Origin: Prevotellaceae bacterium
GTDB lineage: Bacteria; Bacteroidota; Bacteroidia; Bacteroidales; Paludibacteraceae
Assembly (NCBI GenBank): GCA_031271005.1
Contig: JAISWT010000171.1
Location: forward strand, 1 to 34,182
DNA length: 34,182 nt
Reading direction: 5' to 3'
Shown: one piece after another, positions 1,623 to 33,982 of the stretch
Layout: the number at the start of each line of letters is the position of its first letter
How positions within the stretch are numbered: position 1 is the stretch's first letter
The notes under the pieces: model-generated
The model's input: only the letters and a program-made list of their open reading frames with translations
Database searches by the model: none
What the model was told of the DNA's origin: nothing
Translations under genes and position numbers: made by a program

Positions 1623-1682
1623 ATATCTGTTTGTAAAGTGCCTTGATTGATAAAATTAAGTAAATAGAAACTTTTTGGGTTG

Positions 1683-1714
1683 CAAAATTATATGAAAATA
1701 GTGATATTTCCAAA
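1683..1714 (-). promoter_or_regulatory. Bacteroidota-type promoter of proS
   Basis: On the minus strand TTTG (1711-1714) is followed after 20 bases by TAATTTTG (1683-1690), a full match to the Bacteroidota -33/-7 pattern. It predicts transcription starting about 55 bases before the proS start codon. Confidence 0.7.
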
Positions 1715-1756
1715 CGCGAAAAATGAAAAAACTGTTTTTTACAGAGGAAAGGCTAT

Positions 1757-2737: not shown

Positions 2738-2907
2738 TTTTCAGTTTTCAGAGTTTAGGTTAGTTAGAAATAGTTTTCATTTCTTAATTTCTTAATTTCT
2801 TAATTCTCAATTACTAATTACTAATTGCTAACTGCTAATTGCTAATTGCTAATTACTAATTGCTAATTACTAATTGCTAATTACTAATTGCTAATTGCTA
2901 ATTGCTA
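2738..2907. repeat. Heptamer/octamer repeat module
   Basis: This gap holds CAGTTTT units, then TTAGAG/TTAG words, then TTTCTTAA octamers, then a long run of AATTGCT/AATTACT heptamers (about 2807-2907). The period of 7 or 8 is plain by eye. No gene is visible. Confidence 0.85.
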
Positions 2908-2908
2908 A

Positions 2909-6460: not shown

Positions 6461-6785
6461 GCAGCGAAAGCGCGAAAGGCATGTAAAGGCACAATGCCTC
6501 CTGCCCAATAAAATTGAGAATTGAGAATTGAGAATTGAGAAAAAATTAACCACTAACTACTAACCACTAACAATAATGTACAGACGCAATGCTTTGTGTC
6601 TCAATAGATAAAAAAAAATCTGTGAATTGGAAATCAGCGTTATCTAAATCTGTGGACAAAACTAATTTTGAAAATTATGTTAATTATGTAAATCAAAACT
6701 CTGATAACTGAAGACTACTTTTTTTCACCTGTTGCATTTGGGAAACTCACGTTTTTCGCCTAATTTTGCGCATAAAATTTTACAC
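6461..6785. repeat. murG-pssA gap with heptamers and two small hairpins
   Basis: No gene is visible. The gap contains AATTGAG heptamers (about 6510-6541), CCACTAA-type heptamers (about 6548-6572), a weak stem AGGCAT/ATGCCT (6477-6482 with 6494-6499), and a better stem AGACGCAA (6582-6589) with TTGTGTCT (6594-6601). The pssA promoter closes the gap. Confidence 0.7.
6737..6768 (+). promoter_or_regulatory. Bacteroidota-type promoter of pssA
   Basis: TTTG (6737-6740), 20-base spacer, TAATTTTG (6761-6768), then 17 bases to the chosen ATG. It shows that the longer frame opening at 6732 is not the translated start. Confidence 0.75.
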
Positions 6786-8677: not shown

Positions 8678-11082
<2,405 letters not shown>

Positions 11083-11222
11083 ATTTCACAGAGTAACATA
11101 GAGAAAACACAGAGAGACACAGAGATTTTTTACAACTAAAAAAACTACCGCTTTGTCGGGATAAATATTGCGCTCTTTGCGGTGAAATTGTTTTTACCGC
11201 AAAGAGCACAGGAAAATAAAGT
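11083..11222 (+). repeat. ~140-bp CACAGAG/hairpin element, copy 1
   Basis: Starts with CACAGAG-type words, passes through CTACCGCTTTGTCGGGA and contains a perfect 12-bp stem, GCTCTTTGCGGT (11172-11183) with ACCGCAAAGAGC (11196-11207), loop of 12. It matches 31012-31152 with only a few differences. No convincing open frame lies in it. Confidence 0.85.
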
Positions 11223-11395
11223 TGTCAGTTGTCAGTTGTCAGTTATTAGAGTTTAGAGTTTAGAGTTTAGTTAGGAATAGGTAGAAACTTTAATCAATTA
11301 GCAATTAGCAAATCGTAATTCTCAATTCTCAATTCTCAATTCTCAATTCAAAAACATTTCTTCATTTCTTAATTTCTTCATTCCTTCATTGTCAT
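11223..11395 (+). repeat. Ordered heptamer module B
   Basis: Second module to the right of the element: CAGTTGT units, TTTAGAG array, TTAGGAATAGGTAGAAAC, CAATTAG units, CTCAATT array, CAAAAACATTTCTTCATT and CATTTCTT octamers. Two minus-strand -7-like boxes (11418-11425 and near 11466) follow before grpE, but no gene fits them. Confidence 0.85.
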
Positions 11396-13658: not shown

Positions 13659-14957
13659 ATGAAACGTGTTCTTATAATAACATATTATTGGGCGCCTTCG
13701 GGCGGGTCGGGCGTGCAACGGTGGGTAAAGATGGTGAAATATTTACCACAGTTCAATTGGCAACCTGTGGTTTATACCCCTCAGAACCCCGAATTTCCTT
13801 CTATTGACCACTCGTTGGAACAGGACTTGCCCGAAGATATTGAAGTTATAAAAACTCATATTTGGGAACCATATAATATTTACCGCAACCTTTTTGGGAA
13901 AAAAGGTGAAACGATTAGCGCGGGTTTTATTTCCGAGAACAAAAAATCGGGCTGGAAAGAGCGGTTGAGTATCCGGATTAGAGGCAACTTCCTTATACCC
14001 GACCCGCGCAGGTTTTGGGTGCGACCTTCTGTGAAATTCCTTTCTAAATATCTGAAAACCAATAAGATAGATGCAATAATAACAACAGGACCGCCACATT
14101 CCATGCACCTGATTGGGTTAGGGCTGAAAAAGCGTTTCCCAAACTTGACTTGGATTGCGGATTTCCGCGACCCGTGGACAAATATTGATTTCTATAAAGA
14201 CTTGAAATTAAGCAAATTAGCAGATATAATTCATCATATAAAAGAAAAAAATGTTGCCGAAAATGCCGATAGCATCGTAGTGGTTTCCAATGATATGATA
14301 AATGACTTTGCAGCGATGCAAACCAAAGGTATTGCGCTCATTACCAATGGTTTCGATAGCGATGATTTTCCAAAATCACCTGCGACTGCCGACAGCAAAT
14401 TTTCGCTTGTTCACACAGGCTTGCTCAGTGCAGCACGCAATCCGCTGACATTGTGGCAGGTTCTGGGACAATTATGTGCAGAAAATTCTGATTTCAGGCA
14501 GGATTTGGAAATAAAACTTATTGGAAAAACGGACTTCTCGGTGTTGGAAAAGATTCGCGAAAACGCTTTGCAGCACAATTTGACAACAGTTGATTACCTT
14601 ACTCACGCCGAAGCAATAGCCGCACAGCAAACAGCACAGGTTTTGTTGCTTCTGATTAACAATTCGGCAAATGTAGCAGGCATTTTGACAGGAAAACTAT
14701 ACGAATATCTCGCCGCACGCCGCCCGATTTTGGCAATCGGCGCGAGCAAAAGCAATGTTGCCGACATTTTGCAACAAACACGTGCAGGCAAAATCGCAGA
14801 CTTCGATGATTTTGAAACCACGAAAAAAAACGTTCTCGAATTTTATAATCAATTTAAAACCAATGCTTTAGACCTCCCAAAAAATTCAATTGAGCAATAT
14901 TCGCGCCGCAATTTAGCCGGCAAATATGCCGAATTGCTGAACGTGGTTAGTGGTTAG
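13659..14957 (+). CDS. GT4-like glycosyltransferase
   Basis: A 432-residue putative GT-B glycosyltransferase for surface or lipid-linked sugars. The N-terminal acceptor half opens with KRVLIITYYWAPSGGSGVQRW, a glycine-rich first loop typical of GT4-like enzymes, and continues with TTGPPHSMHLIGL and WIADFRDPW. The C-terminal donor half includes SLVHTGLL, GILTGKLYEYLAARRPILAIG with the conserved Glu of the KxxEY segment, then NVADILQQTRAG. No signal peptide is seen. Donor and acceptor cannot be told from sequence, and no polysaccharide cluster surrounds it. The leader is all AACCACT repeat. The last codons (VVSG and stop) are written by GGTTAGT heptamers, so the repeat array has reached into the coding end. 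Confidence 0.85.
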   Translation: MKRVLIITYYWAPSGGSGVQRWVKMVKYLPQFNWQPVVYTPQNPEFPSIDHSLEQDLPEDIEVIKTHIWEPYNIYRNLFGKKGETISAGFISENKKSGWKERLSIRIRGNFLIPDPRRFWVRPSVKFLSKYLKTNKIDAIITTGPPHSMHLIGLGLKKRFPNLTWIADFRDPWTNIDFYKDLKLSKLADIIHHIKEKNVAENADSIVVVSNDMINDFAAMQTKGIALITNGFDSDDFPKSPATADSKFSLVHTGLLSAARNPLTLWQVLGQLCAENSDFRQDLEIKLIGKTDFSVLEKIRENALQHNLTTVDYLTHAEAIAAQQTAQVLLLLINNSANVAGILTGKLYEYLAARRPILAIGASKSNVADILQQTRAGKIADFDDFETTKKNVLEFYNQFKTNALDLPKNSIEQYSRRNLAGKYAELLNVVSG

Positions 14958-15215
14958 TGGTTAGTTATTAGTGGTTAATTGTTAGTGGTTAATTGTTAGT
15001 GGTTAATTGTTAGTGGTTAGAGTTTAGAGTTTAGAGTTTAGTTAGGAATTGTTAGAAACTTTAATCAATTAGCAATTAGCAATTAGCGATTAGCAAATCA
15101 TAATTCGTAATTTTTAATTCGTGATTGAATATAATTTCTTCATTTCTTCATTCCTTCATTTCTTCATTCCTTCATTTCTTCATTTCTTCATTGCTAATTG
15201 CTAATTGCTAATTGT
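14943..15215 (+). repeat. Ordered heptamer/octamer module C
   Basis: GGTTAGT/GTTAATT units, TTTAGAG array, TTAGGAATTGTTAGAAAC, CAATTAG units, CATTTCTT octamers and AATTGCT units fill the gap between the convergent glycosyltransferase and xylA genes. No other feature is visible. Confidence 0.85.
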
Positions 15216-16543: not shown

Positions 16544-16773
16544 ATTTTTTTAGATTTTTTTTTTGACACAAAATAAATCAATTAAACGTAAGAACTTCTT
16601 TAAAAATCTGATTTTTTCCTAAATGCAAGTCCCGCAACAGAAAAACAATTTTTAAGAAATATCTGTAATAGTTAAAAGAATTGTGTCGGATTATTTTTAT
16701 TTAATATCTTATTTATTTAAATTAATAATAATAATTAATAATTTCTTAATTCATTCATTTCTTCATTTCTTCA
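16544..16773. other. AT-rich xylA leader region without recognised gene
   Basis: About 230 bases between xylA and the octamer array. It is very AT-rich with long T runs near 16545-16565. I see no open frame worth naming and no well-formed promoter. Confidence 0.5.
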
Positions 16774-16881
16774 TTTCTTAATTTCTTAATTTCTTAATTT
16801 CTTAATTTCTTAATTTCTTAATTTCTTAATTTCTTAATTTCTTAATTTCTTAATTTCTTAATTTCTTAATTTCTTAATTTC
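16774..16881. repeat. Octamer array TTTCTTAA, about 13 copies
   Basis: An almost pure tandem array of the octamer TTTCTTAA runs up to the xylB stop codon. It is preceded by a few CATTTCTT variants from about 16751. It is the longest uniform array in the window and lies within the transcribed gap between xylB and xylA. Confidence 0.95.
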
Positions 16882-18357
16882 TCACCGCAAATATCCTTTC
16901 CATCGTTCATACGCCGCTCTACATTCACTTTGGCAAGCGCTTTCTGCTTCTATTACGGCAAGTTTGGCAAGCGAGCCGAACGCCTCGTTATTGTCTTTGT
17001 AAATTCCTGCGCCAATTCCTGCGCCTTTTGCCGCGCCTGCCGCCCCGTCTGTGTCGTAAAGTTCTATGCTTGCGCCGCTAATGTTGGCAAGCGTTTGGCG
17101 GAAAACAGGCGAGAGAAACATATTTGCGTTGCCTGCGCGTATAACACTGATATTCATCCCCATCGCTTTCATAATTTCCATTCCGTACTGAAACGAAAAC
17201 ACAATACCTTCCTGCGCTGCGCGAATAATGTCGGCTTGCGTATGGATGTTAAAGTTAATGCCGTGAATGGAGCAGTTCGTTTCTCTGTTTTCCAAAATCC
17301 GTTCTGCGCCATTGCCAAAAGGAATTACAGTTAATCCTTTACTGCCAACGGGCGACTTTGACGCGAGCGCGTTCATATCGTTGTAGGAAATACCCTGCGG
17401 GGCGATATTGCGTTTGAGCCACGAATTGAGAATACCTGTTCCGTTGATACACAGTAACACGCCAAGACGCACATTTTCAGGTGAATGATTAACGTGAGCA
17501 AAGGTATTTACTCTCGACAGTTTATCGTAATTTACCTGTCCAAGCACGCCATACACCACTCCCGATGTGCCTGCTGTGGCTGCAATTTCGCCGGCGTTGA
17601 ACACGTTGAGTGAGAGCGCGTTATTTGGCTGGTCGCCGGCGCGGTAGCACACAGGAGTGCCTGCTGCCAAACCAAGTTCGGCGGCTGCCGCAGGCGACAC
17701 AAATCCCTGAATACCAAATGTTTCCGTTATTTTAGGAATAATATTTTCATCAAAATCAAAATGCTTAAGAATTTCCTGCGAGACAGAATTGCGCTGAAAA
17801 TCCCAAAAGATGCCTTCTGAAAGTCCCTCAACCGTAACAGAAATATTGTCAGTGAGTCGCATTGCTATATAGTCGCCCGGAAGCATCAATTTGTCTATTT
17901 GTGAGTAAATTTGCGGCTCGTTTGCTTTGACCCACGCAAGTTTTGCGGCGGTAAAGTTTCCGGGAGAGTTTAATAAATGGCTCAAACACAGGTCTTTACC
18001 TATTTCGTTAAAAGCCTTCTCGCCAAATGGCACAGCCCGCGAGTCGCACCATATAATCGCGGGGCGCAACACGCTTTTTTGCTTATCAACCAGCACCAAG
18101 CCGTGCATTTGCCACGAGATGCCGATTGCCTTAATGTCGGCAGGGTTTACACCAACGGTATTAAGCGCTGATTTACAGGCAGTTTTCAAGTTCTCCCACC
18201 ACGTTTGCGGCTCCTGCTCAGCCCACCCCGACTGATGCGCAATAATGGGCATCTCTACCTTCGGAAAAAAGTCAGACCCCACAATTTTACCGCTTTCAGC
18301 CTCCACAAGGGCTACTTTTATTGACGATGAACCAATGTCAAAACCTAATAAATACAT
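16882..18357 (-). CDS. xylB: Xylulokinase, FGGY family
   Basis: Phosphorylates D-xylulose with ATP to xylulose 5-phosphate for the pentose phosphate pathway. The 491-residue protein begins with the phosphate-binding DIGSSSIK (residues 6-13) and has GWAEQEPQTWWENL, ISWQMHGLVLVD and WCDSRA of the sugar-binding half, and ATAGTSGVVYG, NGTGILNSW and a C-terminal GGY-region equivalent (RAGNANMFLSPVFRQTLANISG) followed by TDGAAGAAKGAGIGAG. It lies between xylA and the xylanase on the same strand, 156 bases from the latter, so the substrate xylulose is well supported by context. Its C-terminus abuts the octamer array. Confidence 0.95.
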   Translation of the reverse strand: MYLLGFDIGSSSIKVALVEAESGKIVGSDFFPKVEMPIIAHQSGWAEQEPQTWWENLKTACKSALNTVGVNPADIKAIGISWQMHGLVLVDKQKSVLRPAIIWCDSRAVPFGEKAFNEIGKDLCLSHLLNSPGNFTAAKLAWVKANEPQIYSQIDKLMLPGDYIAMRLTDNISVTVEGLSEGIFWDFQRNSVSQEILKHFDFDENIIPKITETFGIQGFVSPAAAAELGLAAGTPVCYRAGDQPNNALSLNVFNAGEIAATAGTSGVVYGVLGQVNYDKLSRVNTFAHVNHSPENVRLGVLLCINGTGILNSWLKRNIAPQGISYNDMNALASKSPVGSKGLTVIPFGNGAERILENRETNCSIHGINFNIHTQADIIRAAQEGIVFSFQYGMEIMKAMGMNISVIRAGNANMFLSPVFRQTLANISGASIELYDTDGAAGAAKGAGIGAGIYKDNNEAFGSLAKLAVIEAESACQSECRAAYERWKGYLR

Positions 18358-26820: not shown

Positions 26821-26867
26821 CAAAATAGTTTTCAGTTTTCAATTATCAGTTTTCAGAAAGAGTCTAT

Positions 26868-27078
26868 ATAATTAGTGGTTAGTGGTTAGTACCTCACCCC
26901 CCTGCCCCCTCTCCAAAAGAGAGGGGGAGTAGGGCGTACGGCTGATGTTAATTATTAGAGGTTAGAGTTTAGTTATTAGATTATTTCTTAATTGCTAATT
27001 GCTGCGTATTCTGTATTTCACTATTCACTATTCACTATTAATTCTCAATTCTCAATTCTCAATTCTCAATTCTCAATT
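26868..27078 (+). repeat. Heptamer module and GC-rich hairpin in the tamB-sufD divergent region
   Basis: GGTTAGT units are followed by a GC-rich hairpin, CCCCCTCTC (26905-26913) with GAGAGGGGG (26919-26927), loop CAAAA. Then come TTAGAG words, AATTGCT units, CACTATT units and a CTCAATT array to about 27076. No gene is visible. Confidence 0.8.
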
Positions 27079-27201: not shown

Positions 27202-28542
27202 ATGCACCCCGAAACTCAATATATTAATTTATACCGCAACAATCGCGATCTTATATTCGCCAATTCTTCTGCGCTGATGAACGCCGAGCGCGATGCTGCA
27301 TTCCAAAGATTTTGCTCTCTGGGCTTCCCTGCCGGCAAAGCGGAGGAATACCGGCACACCAATCTTGTGAAGCCGTTTTTGTTTGAATATGGGCTGAATA
27401 TTAGGCGGTTGCGCACCGACTTTGAGGCTCGTAACATTTTTCGCTGCAACGTTAATGGCATCGCAATTTACAACTACCTGACAGTCAATGACGACTTTAT
27501 AGAGAACGATTGCCCCGCCGACTTGCCGCAGGGCGTTGTTATCGGCAGTTTGCGGACAATTTCCGAAACTCAGCCCGACCTTGTCGCCCCGTTTTTAGGG
27601 AGATTAGCACGTGAAAAAGAGGACGGTTTTGTGGCGCTCAACGGCACATTTGCACAGGACGGCTTCTTTATGTATGTGCCTGATAATGTTGCCATTGAGC
27701 AGCCCGTTCAACTCGTTAATCTGATGCGTGCAAATGTAGATTTTATGGCGAACAGCCGCAATTTGATTATACTCGGCAAAAACGCGCGCGCACAACTGCT
27801 TACCTGCCGGCACACAGCCGGACAGGTGAATTACTTTGCAAATTGCCTTACCGAAATATTCGTGGGCGAAAACGCTGATTTCCAGTATTATGCACTCGAA
27901 AATAGCGGGCATAATCTATCCGACTTCTCTACGGTTATAATTGAGCAGGCAACCCGCTCGCGAGTTCTGGCAAATGTAATCACACTGCACAACGGCATAA
28001 CACACAACAACATAGATATTCACCTCAACGGCGAGAACGCCGAAACCACGCTTTGCGGAATGGTAACTGCCGACAAAAACCAGTCGACAAATAATGCAAC
28101 GGCTATCTTTCACAATGCGCCAAACTGCACGAGCAACGAACTGTTCAAATATATTCTTGACGAAAATTCGCTGTGCGGCTTCTCGGGAAAAATATTTGTT
28201 GAACCATACGCGCAAAAAACCATCGCATACCAAACCAACCGCAATATTCTGCTGTCGGACACTGCCCGAATGTACACCAAGCCGCAACTCGAAATTTACG
28301 CAGATGATGTGAAATGCTCGCACGGCGCAACTGTGGGGCAACTTGACGAGAACGCGCTCTTTTACATGCAGCAGCGGGGCATTGCGAGCAACGAGGCACG
28401 GCTGATACTGATGTATGCCTTTGCCGCCGAAATAGTGGAAAAAATACGCATCGCCCCCCTGCGCGACCGCATCAAAATGATGACCGAAAACAGATTGCGA
28501 ACAGGCAACTCAACGGCTGGAAGATGTGCTATCTGCCTGTAA
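27202..28542 (+). CDS. sufD: SufD, iron-sulfur cluster assembly scaffold subunit
   Basis: Part of the SufBCD complex that builds Fe-S clusters in the cytosol. The 446-residue protein has an N-terminal helical part with FPAGKAEEYRHTNLVKPFLFE, where the GxxEEYR pattern is characteristic, then the right-handed beta-helix with SRNLIILGKNARAQLL, and the conserved C-terminal KCSHGATVGQLDENALFYMQQRGI and YAFAAEIVEKI. SufB, SufC and SufS genes are normally adjacent in Bacteroidota and are not in this window, so the gene is isolated here. The extreme C-terminus GRCAICL is cysteine-rich, as in several relatives. A 7-bp stem (AACTCGC 28541-28547 with GCGAGTT 28568-28574) starts at the stop codon and might be a weak terminator. 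Confidence 0.92.
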   Translation: MHPETQYINLYRNNRDLIFANSSALMNAERDAAFQRFCSLGFPAGKAEEYRHTNLVKPFLFEYGLNIRRLRTDFEARNIFRCNVNGIAIYNYLTVNDDFIENDCPADLPQGVVIGSLRTISETQPDLVAPFLGRLAREKEDGFVALNGTFAQDGFFMYVPDNVAIEQPVQLVNLMRANVDFMANSRNLIILGKNARAQLLTCRHTAGQVNYFANCLTEIFVGENADFQYYALENSGHNLSDFSTVIIEQATRSRVLANVITLHNGITHNNIDIHLNGENAETTLCGMVTADKNQSTNNATAIFHNAPNCTSNELFKYILDENSLCGFSGKIFVEPYAQKTIAYQTNRNILLSDTARMYTKPQLEIYADDVKCSHGATVGQLDENALFYMQQRGIASNEARLILMYAFAAEIVEKIRIAPLRDRIKMMTENRLRTGNSTAGRCAICL

Positions 28543-28581
28543 CTCGCACCTGTACATTATGAAATCGGCGAGTTTAATATC

Positions 28582-28658
28582 AAAACATTTTCGCTCATTG
28601 CACGCGCTTGGAAAACCGGAGTTTTTAATCTAATTTTGCAGCAGATAAAGTAAAAGTA
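28582..28658 (+). repeat. 77-bp perfect direct repeat, left copy, with promoter
   Basis: Identical over 77 bases to 29515-29591. It contains TTG (28608-28610), a 20-base spacer and TAATTTTG (28631-28638), and it ends six bases before the KilA-N ATG. It is both one half of a duplication and the gene's promoter. Confidence 0.95.
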
Positions 28659-28664
28659 TTTGAT

Positions 28665-29498
28665 ATGAGCAAAAAAGAAATAATAAATGTGCAGGGAACG
28701 GAAATAATTCTACTGTCGCACCAAAAAGAAGATTATATTTCACTAACGGATATGGCCAAGCATAAAAATGCAGAAATTCCGGCAACAGTCATATCACATT
28801 GGATGAGTACTAACTTTTCAATCAATTACATGGGTCTGTGGGAGCGTATGAACAATCCTGCTTTTAATCTCACGGGATTCCGTGAGGTTAGAATGTTGAG
28901 TACGGAATCGGGGTTCGCACTTTCGCCCAAGCAGTGGATTGCTATGACAAATGCCACAGGAATTGTTTCTAAAGCGGGACGTTATGGCGGCGGGACGTTT
29001 GCACACAGGAATATTGCTTTTGAATTTGCCTCGTGGCTCAGTCCTGAATTTAAATATTATCTTATCAGTGAGTTTGAACGCCTCAAAATAGGAGAACAGC
29101 AACATCTATCCCTCGAATGGAACTTGCAGCGTACCCTCTCAAAAATTAACTACCATATTCATACAGATGCAATTAAGGAACGTATTATCCCGAATATCGT
29201 TACCAAAGAACAGATTGTTTACACCTACGCTTCGGAAGCCGACTTGCTGAATGTGGCACTTTTTGGCAAAACGGCAGCGCAATGGCGAACCGACAATCCT
29301 AACAGCAAAGGCAATATTCGTGATTATGCCACGCTGGAACAGTTAGTTGTCCTGTCCAACATGGAAAGTATCAACGCTTTACTGATACGGCAGGGACTGC
29401 CGCAGGGCGAGCGGCTCGTGCAACTCAACAATGTAGCAATCACGCAGATGAAATCGCTCACGGACAACCAAAACCTCGTCAAACGGCTGAATGTATAA
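28665..29498 (+). CDS. KilA-N domain protein
   Basis: A 277-residue protein with an N-terminal KilA-N domain, a DNA-binding module first known from phages and large DNA viruses. Typical pieces are ISLTDMAKHKN (about 26-36), VISHWMSTN, the GLWERMNNPAFN segment, and GGTFAHRNIAFEFASWLSPEFKYYLISEFERLK (about 109-141). The C-terminal half (residues 150-277; YTYASEADLLNVALFGKTAAQWR and ATLEQLVVLSNMESINALLI) resembles the tail often attached to this domain in Bacteroidota; its role is not known to me. It may be a regulator left by a prophage or other mobile element. A perfect 77-bp repeat flanks it, and the left copy supplies the promoter. No integrase or transposase is nearby. Confidence 0.85.
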   Translation: MSKKEIINVQGTEIILLSHQKEDYISLTDMAKHKNAEIPATVISHWMSTNFSINYMGLWERMNNPAFNLTGFREVRMLSTESGFALSPKQWIAMTNATGIVSKAGRYGGGTFAHRNIAFEFASWLSPEFKYYLISEFERLKIGEQQHLSLEWNLQRTLSKINYHIHTDAIKERIIPNIVTKEQIVYTYASEADLLNVALFGKTAAQWRTDNPNSKGNIRDYATLEQLVVLSNMESINALLIRQGLPQGERLVQLNNVAITQMKSLTDNQNLVKRLNV

Positions 29499-29514
29499 GA
29501 GGAGAATTACCGTA

Positions 29515-29591
29515 AAAACATTTTCGCTCATTGCACGCGCTTGGAAAACCGGAGTTTTTAATCTAATTTTGCAGCAGATAAAGTAAAAGTA
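29515..29591 (+). repeat. 77-bp perfect direct repeat, right copy, with promoter
   Basis: Identical to 28582-28658, including the promoter boxes (TAATTTTG at 29564-29571). An ATG follows ten bases later at 29601, but its frame quickly runs into the junction repeat and CAGTTTT heptamers. Confidence 0.95.
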
Positions 29592-29620
29592 AAAACGAAG
29601 ATGAATAACTTAACAAAAAG

Positions 29621-29644
29621 GAACGTTTTAAGCAGCGAGAGCAG
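29621..29644 (+). repeat. Junction repeat, copy 2
   Basis: Same sequence as 5097-5120 (GAACGTTTTAAGCAGCGAGA and four further bases). In both places it directly follows the broken 5' part of a frame. Confidence 0.7.
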
Positions 29645-29732
29645 AAGTAGTTTTCAGTTTTCAGTTTTCAGTTTTCAGAAAGTAGAGTGTGTTTATTATT
29701 CACTATTCGTTATTAACTATTCACTGCCAACT

Positions 29733-29769
29733 ATGCCGAGTCGCGCAAAACGACTAAATTTATTGAAAC
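29733..29769 (+). repeat. ATGCCGAGTCGC repeat, copy 3
   Basis: Third copy of the block at 2909 and 5167, again without the right arm. It lies about 80 bases before crcB. Confidence 0.75.
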
Positions 29770-29846
29770 GAAAGCAACAACCATTAATCGGCAAGTAAGT
29801 TACTGCTGAGAATTTCTCTTTATTAACAAATATTTATATCAAAAAA

Positions 29847-30215
29847 ATGCTAAAGAATATACTTTTTGTGGGCATTGGCGGCGCAAGCGGAAGTGTGATG
29901 CGCTATCTTATTTCTTTTTTTGTAAACAAATATAATTCAAGCAGTTTCCCCTTTGCTACTTTTACCGTGAACATCATAGGTTGCTTTGTCGCAGGGCTGC
30001 TGCTTGCATCGGCAGCAAAAAGTACTGCACTGACCAACGAACTGAAAATGTTAATGATTGTTGGCTTTTGTGGCGGTTTAACTACATTCTCAACGTTTTC
30101 TGCCGAAAATGTTACACTCTTTCAGAACGGAGATTATACTATTCTGGCAATTTACGTTTTAGCAAGCGTACTTTTGGGTGTTGCTGCCGTATTTGCAGGT
30201 TTATTAATTATTTAA
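29847..30215 (+). CDS. crcB: CrcB/Fluc fluoride channel
   Basis: Small inner-membrane channel that exports fluoride as a dual-topology dimer. The 122 residues form four hydrophobic helices, with the family marks GGASGSVMRY near residue 11, TFTVNIIGCF carrying the conserved Asn, and GFCGGLTTFSTFSAE, the sodium-site and fluoride-track region. Length is standard. ruvA begins six bases after its stop, so the two are probably co-transcribed. I looked for the fluoride riboswitch upstream and did not find its pattern. The upstream 50 bases are AT-rich with no clear promoter. Confidence 0.93.
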   Translation: MLKNILFVGIGGASGSVMRYLISFFVNKYNSSSFPFATFTVNIIGCFVAGLLLASAAKSTALTNELKMLMIVGFCGGLTTFSTFSAENVTLFQNGDYTILAIYVLASVLLGVAAVFAGLLII

Positions 30216-30221
30216 AATATT

Positions 30222-30812
30222 ATGATTGACTATATTAAAGGCAACGTTGCCGAACTCACGCCAACTTATGCGGTGTTCGAAACAGGCGGCATTGGTTATT
30301 CTATTCAAATTTCGCTGCTTACATACACGGCTCTGTCTGCGGTGCAAGCAGATAAACTGTATATTTATGAGGCAATTCGCGAGGATGCGCACACGCTGTT
30401 CGGATTTAAAACGCAAAAGGAAAGGCAGTTGTTTCTGCTGCTCATTTCCGTTTCGGGCATCGGAGCAAACACCGCGCGAATGATTTTGTCATCGTATTCC
30501 GATGAGGAGATTCGACAGATGATTGCTACAGGCAACGTGTCGGCATTAAATTCCATCAAAGGCATAGGCGCGAAAACAGCCCAGCGAATTATTGTTGATT
30601 TGAAAGATAAGATTGTCAAACTTTCGGGCATTTCGGAAGACAGTCAGCAACTTGCAGGGCAAATGAACGACCTGAGGAGCGAGGCTGTCGCCGCGCTGAC
30701 AATGCTCGGATTCGCATCTGCACCATCGCAAAAGGCGGTAGAGAAAGCGCTGCGCGAAACCTCTGCCGCCACTGTGGAACAGATTATAAAAATGGCTCTG
30801 AAAATGCTTTAA
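30222..30812 (+). CDS. ruvA: RuvA, Holliday junction branch-migration subunit
   Basis: Tetrameric protein that binds Holliday junctions and loads the RuvB motor. At 196 residues it is of normal length, with the N-terminal OB fold (MIDYIKGNVAELTPTYAVFETGGIGYSIQI), two helix-hairpin-helix motifs (LISVSGIGANTARMIL and LNSIKGIGAKTAQRIIVDLKDKI), and the C-terminal domain III (SEAVAALTMLGFASAPSQKAVEKAL) that contacts RuvB. It follows crcB by six bases. No ruvB or ruvC lies in the window. The gene is followed immediately by a large repeat block. Confidence 0.96.
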   Translation: MIDYIKGNVAELTPTYAVFETGGIGYSIQISLLTYTALSAVQADKLYIYEAIREDAHTLFGFKTQKERQLFLLLISVSGIGANTARMILSSYSDEEIRQMIATGNVSALNSIKGIGAKTAQRIIVDLKDKIVKLSGISEDSQQLAGQMNDLRSEAVAALTMLGFASAPSQKAVEKALRETSAATVEQIIKMALKML

Positions 30813-30816
30813 ATTC

Positions 30817-31010
30817 AGTTTTCAGTTGTCAGTTGTCAGTTATCAGTTATTAGTTATTAGAGTTTAGAGTTTAGAGTTTAGAGTTTAGAGTTTAGAGTTT
30901 AGTTAGGAGTGGTTAGGTATGGTTTTAATTCTCAATTCTCAATTCTCAATTCAAAAACATTTCTTCATTCCTTCATTAACCACTAACCACTGACCACTAA
31001 CCACTAACCA
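30817..31010 (+). repeat. Ordered heptamer module D1
   Basis: CAGTTTT/CAGTTGT units, a TTTAGAG array, TTAGGAGTGGTTAGGTATGG, a CTCAATT array, CAAAAACATTTCTTCATT and AACCACT heptamers, in the same order as module A. Confidence 0.85.
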
Positions 31011-31011
31011 C

Positions 31012-31152
31012 ATTTCACAGAGTAAAACAGAGAAAAAACACAGAGAGACACAGAGATTTTTTACAACTAAAAAACTACCGCTTTGGCGGGATAAATATTG
31101 CGCTCTTTGCGGTGAAATTGTTTTTACCGCAAAGAGCACAGGGAAATAAAGT
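31012..31152 (+). repeat. ~140-bp CACAGAG/hairpin element, copy 2
   Basis: Near-identical to 11083-11222, including the perfect 12-bp stem (31102-31113 with 31126-31137). Like copy 1 it stands between two heptamer modules. Confidence 0.85.
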
Positions 31153-31396
31153 TTTCAGTTATCAGTTTTCAGTTATTAGAGTTTAGAGTTTAGAGTTTAG
31201 AGTTTAGAGTTTAGAGTTTAGTTAGGAATAGTTAGGTATGGTTTTAATTCTTAATTCTTAATTCTCAATTCTCAATTCTCAATTCAAAAACATTTCTTCA
31301 TTCCTTCATTCCTTCATTCCTTCATTTCTTCATTTCTTCATTTCTTCATTAACCACTAACTGCTAATTGCTAACTGCTAACTGCTAATTGCTGACC
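31153..31396 (+). repeat. Ordered heptamer module D2
   Basis: CAGTTTT units, TTTAGAG array, TTAGGAATAGTTAGGTATGG, CTTAATT/CTCAATT array, CAAAAACATTTCTTCATT, CATTCCTT octamers, then CTGCTAA/TTGCTAA heptamers. It ends right at the stop of the M3 peptidase gene. Confidence 0.85.
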
Positions 31397-33518: not shown

Positions 33519-33982
33519 AAGTACTATAAGTATTATTTGTTTTATAAATTATTGAAATTCAATTATTTTTATGTATGTCTGATTTTTTGAGCAATTAATA
33601 ATTAGCAATAATAGCAATTGAATACAGTTAGGAATTGTTTTAATTCTCAATTCTCAATTCTCAATTCAAAAACATTTCTTAATTTCTTAATTATTAACCA
33701 CTAATCACTATTAATAATTCTCTGCAAAAATAGGTATAAAGCGCGAATTTTCCAAACTCGCACAATGACTAAGGTTTTTTTTGTATGTTTTTTTTCGTTT
33801 TGCATTTTTCTGTATTATTTTTGTGTTAATAAATTCTCTAAATTTTTAATTTGACATTTTAGACCTTCAATAATTTTCAAAAAACACGAAACCTTTTCAC
33901 GGCACGGACTGCAAGTCCGCCTCATCGAGGGGAATTTGCCAATGTCATTTGCAGAGTTATTTCTATTTCAAAAATAAAGGAT
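33519..33982. repeat. Intergenic region with heptamer module E and a small hairpin
   Basis: About 460 bases without a recognised gene. A shortened module (CAATTA words, TTAGGAATTGTTTT, CTCAATT array, CAAAAACATTTCTTAATT, AACCACT) covers about 33594-33716. At 33906-33920 CGGACT and AGTCCG form a six-bp stem with loop GCA. The rest is AT-rich with T runs. Confidence 0.7.

What the first reader, a model, noticed from the sequence alone, without database searches (positions are those of the whole stretch)
28582..29591. Perfect 77-bp direct repeat carrying a promoter flanks the KilA-N gene
28582-28658 and 29515-29591 are identical. Each has a full promoter (TTG, 20 bases, TAATTTTG) ending 6-9 bases before an ATG: one starts the KilA-N gene, the other starts a frame that decays at once into repeats. 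The perfect identity means a recent duplication or active gene conversion. It could be the scar of a tandem gene duplication whose second copy was overwritten, a cassette that can be excised by recombination between the repeats, or a promoter-capture element.
Basis: partly seen in the sequence, partly recalled or inferred. Interest (0 to 1): 0.66.

Follow-up and report, generated by a model that had tools for sequence, protein, structure and literature searches.

The report
KilA-N gene inserted with duplicated promoter
A single travelling gene, a candidate anti-phage gene of the KilA-N family, most likely dropped into a promoter in a termite-gut type bacterium and left that promoter copied on both sides of itself, and related loci show that such lone genes do this repeatedly by a mechanism nobody has explained.

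Summary
The 77-bp perfect direct repeat is real and not an assembly artefact: the contig overlap indicates k = 119, longer than the repeat. Its first 60 bp are one member of a genome-wide promoter family. The two copies flank one foreign ORF, 28665-29498: KilA-N domain, PADLOC candidate defence family PDC-S22. DNA similarity to relatives at unrelated loci begins 1-2 bp before the ATG and stops near the stop codon, so the ORF alone travels. Among 176 relatives, 11 have long direct repeats of local sequence on both sides, against 3 of 264 control genes. These include repeats of a peptidase, nifS, a glycosyltransferase, a helicase start and a promoter. Helicase loci without inserts give the empty site; others carry KilA-N, DinD, RhuM or a DUF1016-like gene between duplicated helicase starts. 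RhuM behaves alike (8/69). Best reading: insertion of a bare ORF between sufD and crcB with a 77-bp target duplication that gave the newcomer a promoter and left one for crcB. This extends 'insertion with long target duplication', described for restriction-modification genes, to solitary genes. The window's own empty allele, excision and defence function are untested.

The parts
28582..28658 (+). copy 1 of the 77-bp direct repeat (host promoter plus 17 bp); now in front of KilA-N
   Evidence: 100% identical to copy 2; first 60 bp match a genome-wide promoter family
28608..28638 (+). promoter in copy 1: TTG - 20 nt - TAATTTTG
   Evidence: read from sequence; core positions invariant in 17 aligned family members
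28659..29514 (+). inserted unit (856 bp): 6-nt leader, KilA-N ORF, 16 nt
   Evidence: lies between the two copies; similarity to relatives at other loci covers only the ORF part
28665..29498 (+). KilA-N domain protein, 277 aa, candidate phage-defence family PDC-S22
   Evidence: Pfam PF04383 E 2.9e-16; PADLOC PDLC04962 E 4.8e-122; PHROG 2657 E 2.1e-53
29515..29591 (+). copy 2 of the repeat; presumed original promoter of the crcB-ruvA operon
   Evidence: followed by crcB and ruvA on the same strand
29541..29571 (+). promoter in copy 2
   Evidence: as copy 1
29601..29798 (+). 65-codon frame after copy 2, running into simple repeats; probably not a gene
   Evidence: no similarity to KilA-N
27202..28542 (+). 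sufD, left flank of the insertion site
   Evidence: TIGR01981 E 7.3e-77
29847..30215 (+). crcB (fluoride channel), right flank
   Evidence: PF02537 E 2.1e-30
30222..30812 (+). ruvA, next gene downstream on the same strand
   Evidence: TIGR00084 E 3.3e-59

Best explanation
A horizontally moving single gene (a PDC-S22 type KilA-N ORF with almost no flanking DNA) inserted recently between sufD and crcB, at the 3' edge of the promoter of crcB-ruvA. The insertion duplicated 77 bp of target DNA, so the promoter now stands on both sides: copy 1 drives KilA-N and copy 2 still serves crcB-ruvA. Shown: the identical copies; the foreign ORF and its sharp borders; the same architecture with unrelated host sequences around other members of the family; empty and multiply loaded versions of one such site. 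Inferred: that this locus arose by that route, which promoter drives which gene, and the molecular step. For that step the most likely route is illegitimate recombination or a template switch that re-enters the host sequence upstream of where it left, giving target duplications of variable length without end sequences or a dedicated transposase.
For: Perfect 77-bp repeat with unrelated outer flanks. DNA similarity to relatives in wholly different neighbourhoods (82.5% to L108 beside coaE; 77.6%, 79%, 75% to L109, L110, L111) begins 1-2 bp before the ATG and ends near the stop. Other cross-locus pairs behave alike, e.g. Bacteroidales L132 against Treponema L160 at -1/+1 bp. Long direct repeats of local sequence flank 11 of 176 KilA-N genes against 3 of 264 control genes, Fisher p 0.003; all 3 control cases share their repeat with a KilA-N insertion. 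Clear cases: L111 (210 bp, 99%, plus 51- and 77-bp blocks from further downstream), L135 (92 bp, 97%, end of an S46 peptidase), L180 (80 bp, 95%, P-RhuM-P-KilA-N-P-mod), L174 (92 bp, 90%, end of nifS), L220 (92 bp, 88%, start of a GIY-YIG helicase). At the L220 site, L280, L285, L287, L288 and L290 have an apparent methyltransferase gene directly followed by the helicase, with no insert and no second copy, while L281 and L284 carry other genes bounded by copies of the helicase start. RhuM genes show the same at 8/69.
Against: The empty sufD-promoter-crcB allele was not found: the two congeners are distant (sufD 69%), and in G001 sufD is followed by other genes. Only about 6% of KilA-N loci show a long flanking repeat, so most insertions either left none or it has decayed. 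The insert is not perfectly flush (6 and 16 nt of linker). One relative (L253) is better explained by tandem duplication and deletion.
Confidence: 0.75

Rival explanations
1. Tandem duplication of promoter plus KilA-N, followed by deletion of the second gene, leaving the second promoter.
For: L253 has a 236-bp repeat that includes the last ~87 bp of KilA-N itself, the expected mark of a tandem duplication with later deletion.
Against: No KilA-N remnant after copy 2. The deletion border would have to fall by chance within 6 bp of the start codon. In most other loci the repeat is host sequence and not part of the gene.
Confidence: 0.1
2. Integration of a circle (KilA-N plus promoter) by homologous recombination at the promoter, that is an excisable cassette shared among strains.
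For: Stacked arrays with one repeat between successive genes (L180, L220, L236) would also arise by such exchange, and 77 bp of identity is enough for recombination in principle.
Against: Other copies of the promoter family are at most 83% identical over the 60 bp, so a circle from another promoter would leave two different copies. It does not explain how a repeat first came to flank the gene. No integrase lies nearby and no circle was seen.
Confidence: 0.09
3. Two separate members of a dispersed promoter family, made identical by gene conversion.
For: Bases 1-60 belong to a large promoter family, 119 places at E<=1 in this genome.
Against: Identity runs 17 bp past the family into sequence other members do not share, and other full-length members are at most 83% identical.
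Confidence: 0.04
4. Assembly artefact (77 is a common k-mer length).
For: It is a fragmented assembly of 245 contigs, and repeats of exactly k are a known artefact.
Against: Contigs C149 and C174 share exactly 119 bp at their starts, so k was probably 119, as in the 'k119_' names of related termite-gut type genomes; 119-mers span the repeat.
Confidence: 0.02

Closest known systems
Insertion with long target duplication (Nobusato et al. 2000; Furuta et al. 2010), as cited in PMC3031569 and PMC1643837
   Same: Gene inserted without a transposase of its own, flanked by long direct repeats of variable length made from target DNA; often defence genes; empty allele with a single copy in relatives (shown here for the helicase site).
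   Different: Described for restriction-modification genes found by strain comparison in H. pylori; here the unit is one non-RM ORF (KilA-N, also RhuM and DinD) in Bacteroidota, with stacking of several units at one site. No strain-level empty allele for the window.
Transposed genes with flanking repeats in Arabidopsis (PMC2869330)
   Same: Single genes moved to new places with flanking direct repeats that often match the target site; controls rarely have them.
   Different: Eukaryote; gene classes and the proposed circle recombination differ.
BstA, prophage-encoded abortive-infection protein with a KilA-N-like domain (PMC8585504)
   Same: KilA-N-like N-terminal domain, about 300 aa, single gene, phage defence (candidate here, shown for BstA).
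   Different: No PADLOC hit other than PDC-S22; BstA sits in prophages and has a 63-bp aba self-immunity element overlapping its start, for which no counterpart was tested here.
PADLOC PDC-S22
   Same: The window protein matches the whole model (residues 1-271, E 4.8e-122).
   Different: PDC-S22 is only a candidate; I found one paper that mentions it, and only for co-occurrence in S. suis.
DdrC of Deinococcus radiodurans (PDB 7qvb, 8u0g)
   Same: The only confident fold match of the predicted structure, Foldseek E 2.6e-4, probability 1.00; a DNA-binding DNA-damage response protein.
   Different: TM-score 0.30, 15% identity, model pTM 0.57; relation and function are not established.

Membership tests
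Insertion with long target duplication | Inserted gene flanked by long direct repeats of variable length | tested here: met
   77 bp here; roughly 40-240 bp around other KilA-N genes and 27 bp at L284
Insertion with long target duplication | Repeat is target (host) DNA present once in the empty allele | tested here: inconclusive
   No empty allele for the window. Met at the related helicase site L220, with empty forms L280, L285, L287, L288, L290
Insertion with long target duplication | No transposase, no terminal inverted repeats | tested here: met
   KilA-N is the only gene-like ORF between the copies; no inverted repeat pair frames the unit
Insertion with long target duplication | Insert carries restriction-modification genes (original description) | tested here: not met
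   Insert is a single KilA-N ORF; hence called a variant
PDC-S22 (PADLOC candidate phage defence) | Full-length match to model PDLC04962 | tested here: met
   E 4.8e-122, residues 1-271 against model 1-270 of 281
PDC-S22 (PADLOC candidate phage defence) | Protects against phage | not testable with these tools
   No functional report found
BstA | BstA-type full-length protein | tested here: not met
   Only PDC-S22 is reported by the PADLOC scan at E<=1
Classical transposon or IS | Transposase gene and short (2-15 bp) target duplication | tested here: not met
   KilA-N only, 77-bp duplication
   Upstream sequences of relatives are unrelated; one KilA-N gene of this kind in the genome

The most novel reading that the evidence does not exclude
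KilA-N, RhuM, DinD and similar solitary ORFs are minimal self-mobile units: the encoded DNA-binding protein, whose predicted fold resembles the DNA-damage protein DdrC, itself captures DNA ends and helps paste its own ORF into gene borders with a long target duplication. That would be a single-gene mobile element without a known recombinase.
Probability: 0.08. Interest if true: 0.9.

Novelty: new variant of a known kind. Interest (0 to 1): 0.5.

Why it matters
How single genes enter genomes cleanly, with no transposase, is largely unexplained. The present set shows one ORF family that repeatedly lands at gene borders, brings almost no flanking DNA, and leaves neighbours intact because the border itself is duplicated. 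It offers a recent, perfectly preserved example (100% identical 77 bp), empty and stacked versions of one site, and a second family (RhuM) with the same habit. That makes the 25-year-old idea of insertion with long target duplication directly testable, and it suggests how defence loci gain accessory genes.

Tried and rejected
Repeat as RNA element or riboswitch: Rfam finds nothing credible around it, and its predicted fold is no better than shuffles (z 0.18). Attachment site of an integrative element: no tRNA in the window and no integrase beside it. Assembly artefact: rejected by k = 119. E. coli as a source of strain-level empty sites: only 1 of 5,426 genomes gave a match, inside an island beside dinD, so it was no use. 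Empty site in congeners: in G001 sufD and crcB are not adjacent, and none was found in G002. Low-complexity or palindromic flanking repeats (L232, L162, L116, L035, L225) were not counted as clear cases. The Furuta 2010 paper was not held; its content is cited only through PMC3031569. The DdrC structure papers were not found in the library; what I say of DdrC beyond the PDB titles is from memory.

Full report
WHAT IS THERE. The two 77-bp stretches, 28582-28658 and 29515-29591, are identical. Between them lie 856 bp: 6 nt, an ORF of 277 codons (28665-29498) and 16 nt. The ORF has a KilA-N domain (PF04383, E 2.9e-16) and matches PADLOC's candidate phage-defence family PDC-S22 over its whole length (E 4.8e-122). 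To the left is sufD, to the right crcB and ruvA, all on the + strand. The window is the whole of contig C149 of a 2.8-Mb, 245-contig genome. Its KilA-N protein is closest to those of termite-gut type Bacteroidota genomes (90%, 86%, 84%; 'termite gut' is my reading of the sample names).

THE REPEAT IS A HOST PROMOTER. Each copy has TTG, 20 bases and TAATTTTG, the form of Bacteroidota promoters (own knowledge). A search of the genome with the repeat finds other places 78-90% identical over parts of bases 1-60. A sequence profile of 17 of them matches 119 places at E<=1 in this genome and 32 in a congener (only the 150 best candidates of each genome were scored). Five strong ones lie in this window: the two copies, 1681-1741(-), 6717-6769(+) and 33722-33783(-). 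So bases 1-60 are a common promoter type. Bases 61-77 are not shared by the other members, so the exact 77-bp identity marks a direct copy of one by the other.

NOT AN ARTEFACT. The first 119 bp of contigs C149 and C174 are identical and the match ends there, which is what a de Bruijn assembly with k = 119 leaves. Contigs of related genomes are named k119_. A 77-bp repeat is shorter than that k-mer, so both junctions were read within single k-mers.

THE GENE IS FOREIGN AND TRAVELS AS A BARE ORF. The window gene aligns to relatives in quite different neighbourhoods. For the closest, similarity starts at 28663/28664 and ends at 29450-29492, with nothing outside: L108 82.5% (beside coaE, whose start codon overlaps the KilA-N stop), L109/L022 77.6%, L110 79%, L111 75%. 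Across 173 loci, other pairs in different contexts show the same borders, e.g. L025/L135 at -7/0 and Bacteroidales L132 against Treponema L160 at -1/+1. Some lineages, such as Fibrobacter, carry about 85 bp of upstream sequence along. Relatives occur in genomes labelled Bacteroidota, Bacillota, Verrucomicrobia, Spirochaetes, Fibrobacter and others, and on plasmids, satellite phages and phages.

OTHER MEMBERS OF THE FAMILY ARE ALSO FLANKED BY DUPLICATED HOST DNA. I compared 500 bp upstream with 600 bp downstream of 176 KilA-N genes and scored the best direct repeat. A score of 40 or more occurs in 11; in control genes it occurs in 3 of 264 (157 neighbouring ORFs, and 107 ORFs from sufD/crcB loci and the window); Fisher p 0.003. 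The 3 control hits are in loci where the repeat is shared with a KilA-N insertion. A few KilA-N hits are low-complexity (e.g. L232). In the clear ones the repeated DNA belongs to the neighbour: the 3' end of a glycosyltransferase-type gene plus blocks from further downstream (L111), the 3' end of an S46 peptidase (L135), the 3' end of a nifS-type gene (L174), a promoter-like stretch (L180, window), and the start of a GIY-YIG helicase (L220). L184 shows the converse: 61 bp of the KilA-N 3' end is repeated beyond the next gene, an AAA_14/DUF4143 ATPase.

EMPTY AND STACKED SITES. L220 reads methyltransferase-like gene, T, DinD-like gene (Bro-N), T, KilA-N, T = start of the helicase, where T is about 92 bp. 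I searched for that helicase in 396 genomes. In L280, L285, L287, L288 and L290 the upstream gene, which ends much like the one in L220, is followed directly by the helicase with no second T. L279, whose helicase is 93% identical, also has no insert and no second T, though its upstream gene differs. L281 has a DinD-like gene, T and RhuM before the helicase; L284 has a 27-bp T and a gene whose end looks like DUF1016 (not scanned). One site has therefore received different single genes more than once, each leaving a copy of the target. L180 is similar, with RhuM and KilA-N each behind the same 80-bp sequence. RhuM genes taken as a second family show flanking repeats in 8 of 69 loci (p 2e-4). For example L312 has 71 bp of the downstream gene's start on the other side of RhuM.

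HOW IT MOST LIKELY WORKS. Shown: identity of the copies, origin of the repeat from host sequence, sharp ORF borders, recurrence, and empty and loaded versions at a related site. Inferred: insertion of the ORF at the 3' edge of the promoter with duplication of 77 bp. The duplication would explain why the neighbours survive, since the downstream gene keeps its promoter or start while the newcomer gains one or is placed in an operon. The molecular step is not known. Lengths from 27 bp to several hundred bp, no terminal repeats and no recombinase speak for illegitimate recombination or a template switch that returns to the host sequence behind the exit point. In L220 and L180 the last bases of KilA-N coincide with the start of T, which would fit microhomology; I did not test this statistically. 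The predicted structure (pLDDT 87, pTM 0.57) matches only DdrC with confidence (E 2.6e-4, TM 0.30). That allows, but does not show, a role of the protein at DNA ends.

COMPARISON WITH WHAT IS KNOWN. [quoted passage not shown] PMC1643837 and PMC3154945 say the same of restriction-modification genes in work on H. pylori. The window works like that, but the insert is a lone non-RM gene; hence a variant. PMC2869330 describes a similar statistical pattern for moved genes in Arabidopsis. BstA (PMC8585504) shows that a KilA-N-like single-gene protein can be an abortive-infection factor, but the window protein is not a BstA by the PADLOC scan.

LIMITS. No empty allele, excised allele or circle was available for the window itself. 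The congeners are too distant (sufD 69%, different downstream genes). No reads were available. Defence by PDC-S22 has no functional support that I could find.

Noticed in passing
window 1681-1741(-), 6717-6769(+), 28580-28641, 29513-29574, 33722-33783(-): A conserved ~60-bp promoter type (AAAAACTTTTTTCATTGCNCGCGCTTGGAAAAC...TTTTTCATCTAATTTTGCAG) is used all over this genome (119 places at E<=1) but less in its congener (32); its upstream part is conserved beyond the -33/-7 motifs.
   Followed up: partly
L164, L167, L169, L172, L176, L159 (upstream of KilA-N): Fibrobacter KilA-N genes carry a conserved upstream block with the palindrome-like GAACAAATGTTC, possibly an operator for autoregulation; in L167 the sequence departs exactly at the KilA-N stop codon into what looks like a RhuM fragment.
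   Followed up: partly
L108 898-1234: A KilA-N 3' remnant sits inside what looks like a broken small multidrug-resistance (SMR type) transporter gene.
   Followed up: no
L345 974-1077, 2568-2672, 3246-3328: Three near-identical copies of one sequence around RhuM and a DinD-like fragment, another apparent stacked array.
   Followed up: no
L026 and L047 (congener G001): Two KilA-N paralogues share ~155 bp upstream and the last ~160 bp (95%) but differ in the middle, suggesting mosaic exchange.
   Followed up: partly
L005 and L012 (G000:C107:2970 and C91:7306): Two different genes have a very similar promoter plus leader of about 130 bp.
   Followed up: no
window 2779-2908, 10742-11390, 14943-15214, 16739-16882, 26823-27078, 30815-31392, 33626-33716: Intergenic regions are full of 7- and 8-bp tandem repeats (TTAGAGT, AATTCTC, TAACCAC, CATTTCTT), the same units recurring at many places.
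   Followed up: no
window 28665-29498 (protein): Predicted structure resembles DdrC of Deinococcus radiodurans (Foldseek E 2.6e-4); a relation of KilA-N/PDC-S22 proteins to DNA-damage proteins is worth a separate look.
   Followed up: partly
window 29480-29498: Compared with L111 (AAACGGCTGAAATGA) the window gene end (AAACGGCTGAATGTATAA) looks like a one-base deletion that moved the stop codon by a few bases.
   Followed up: no
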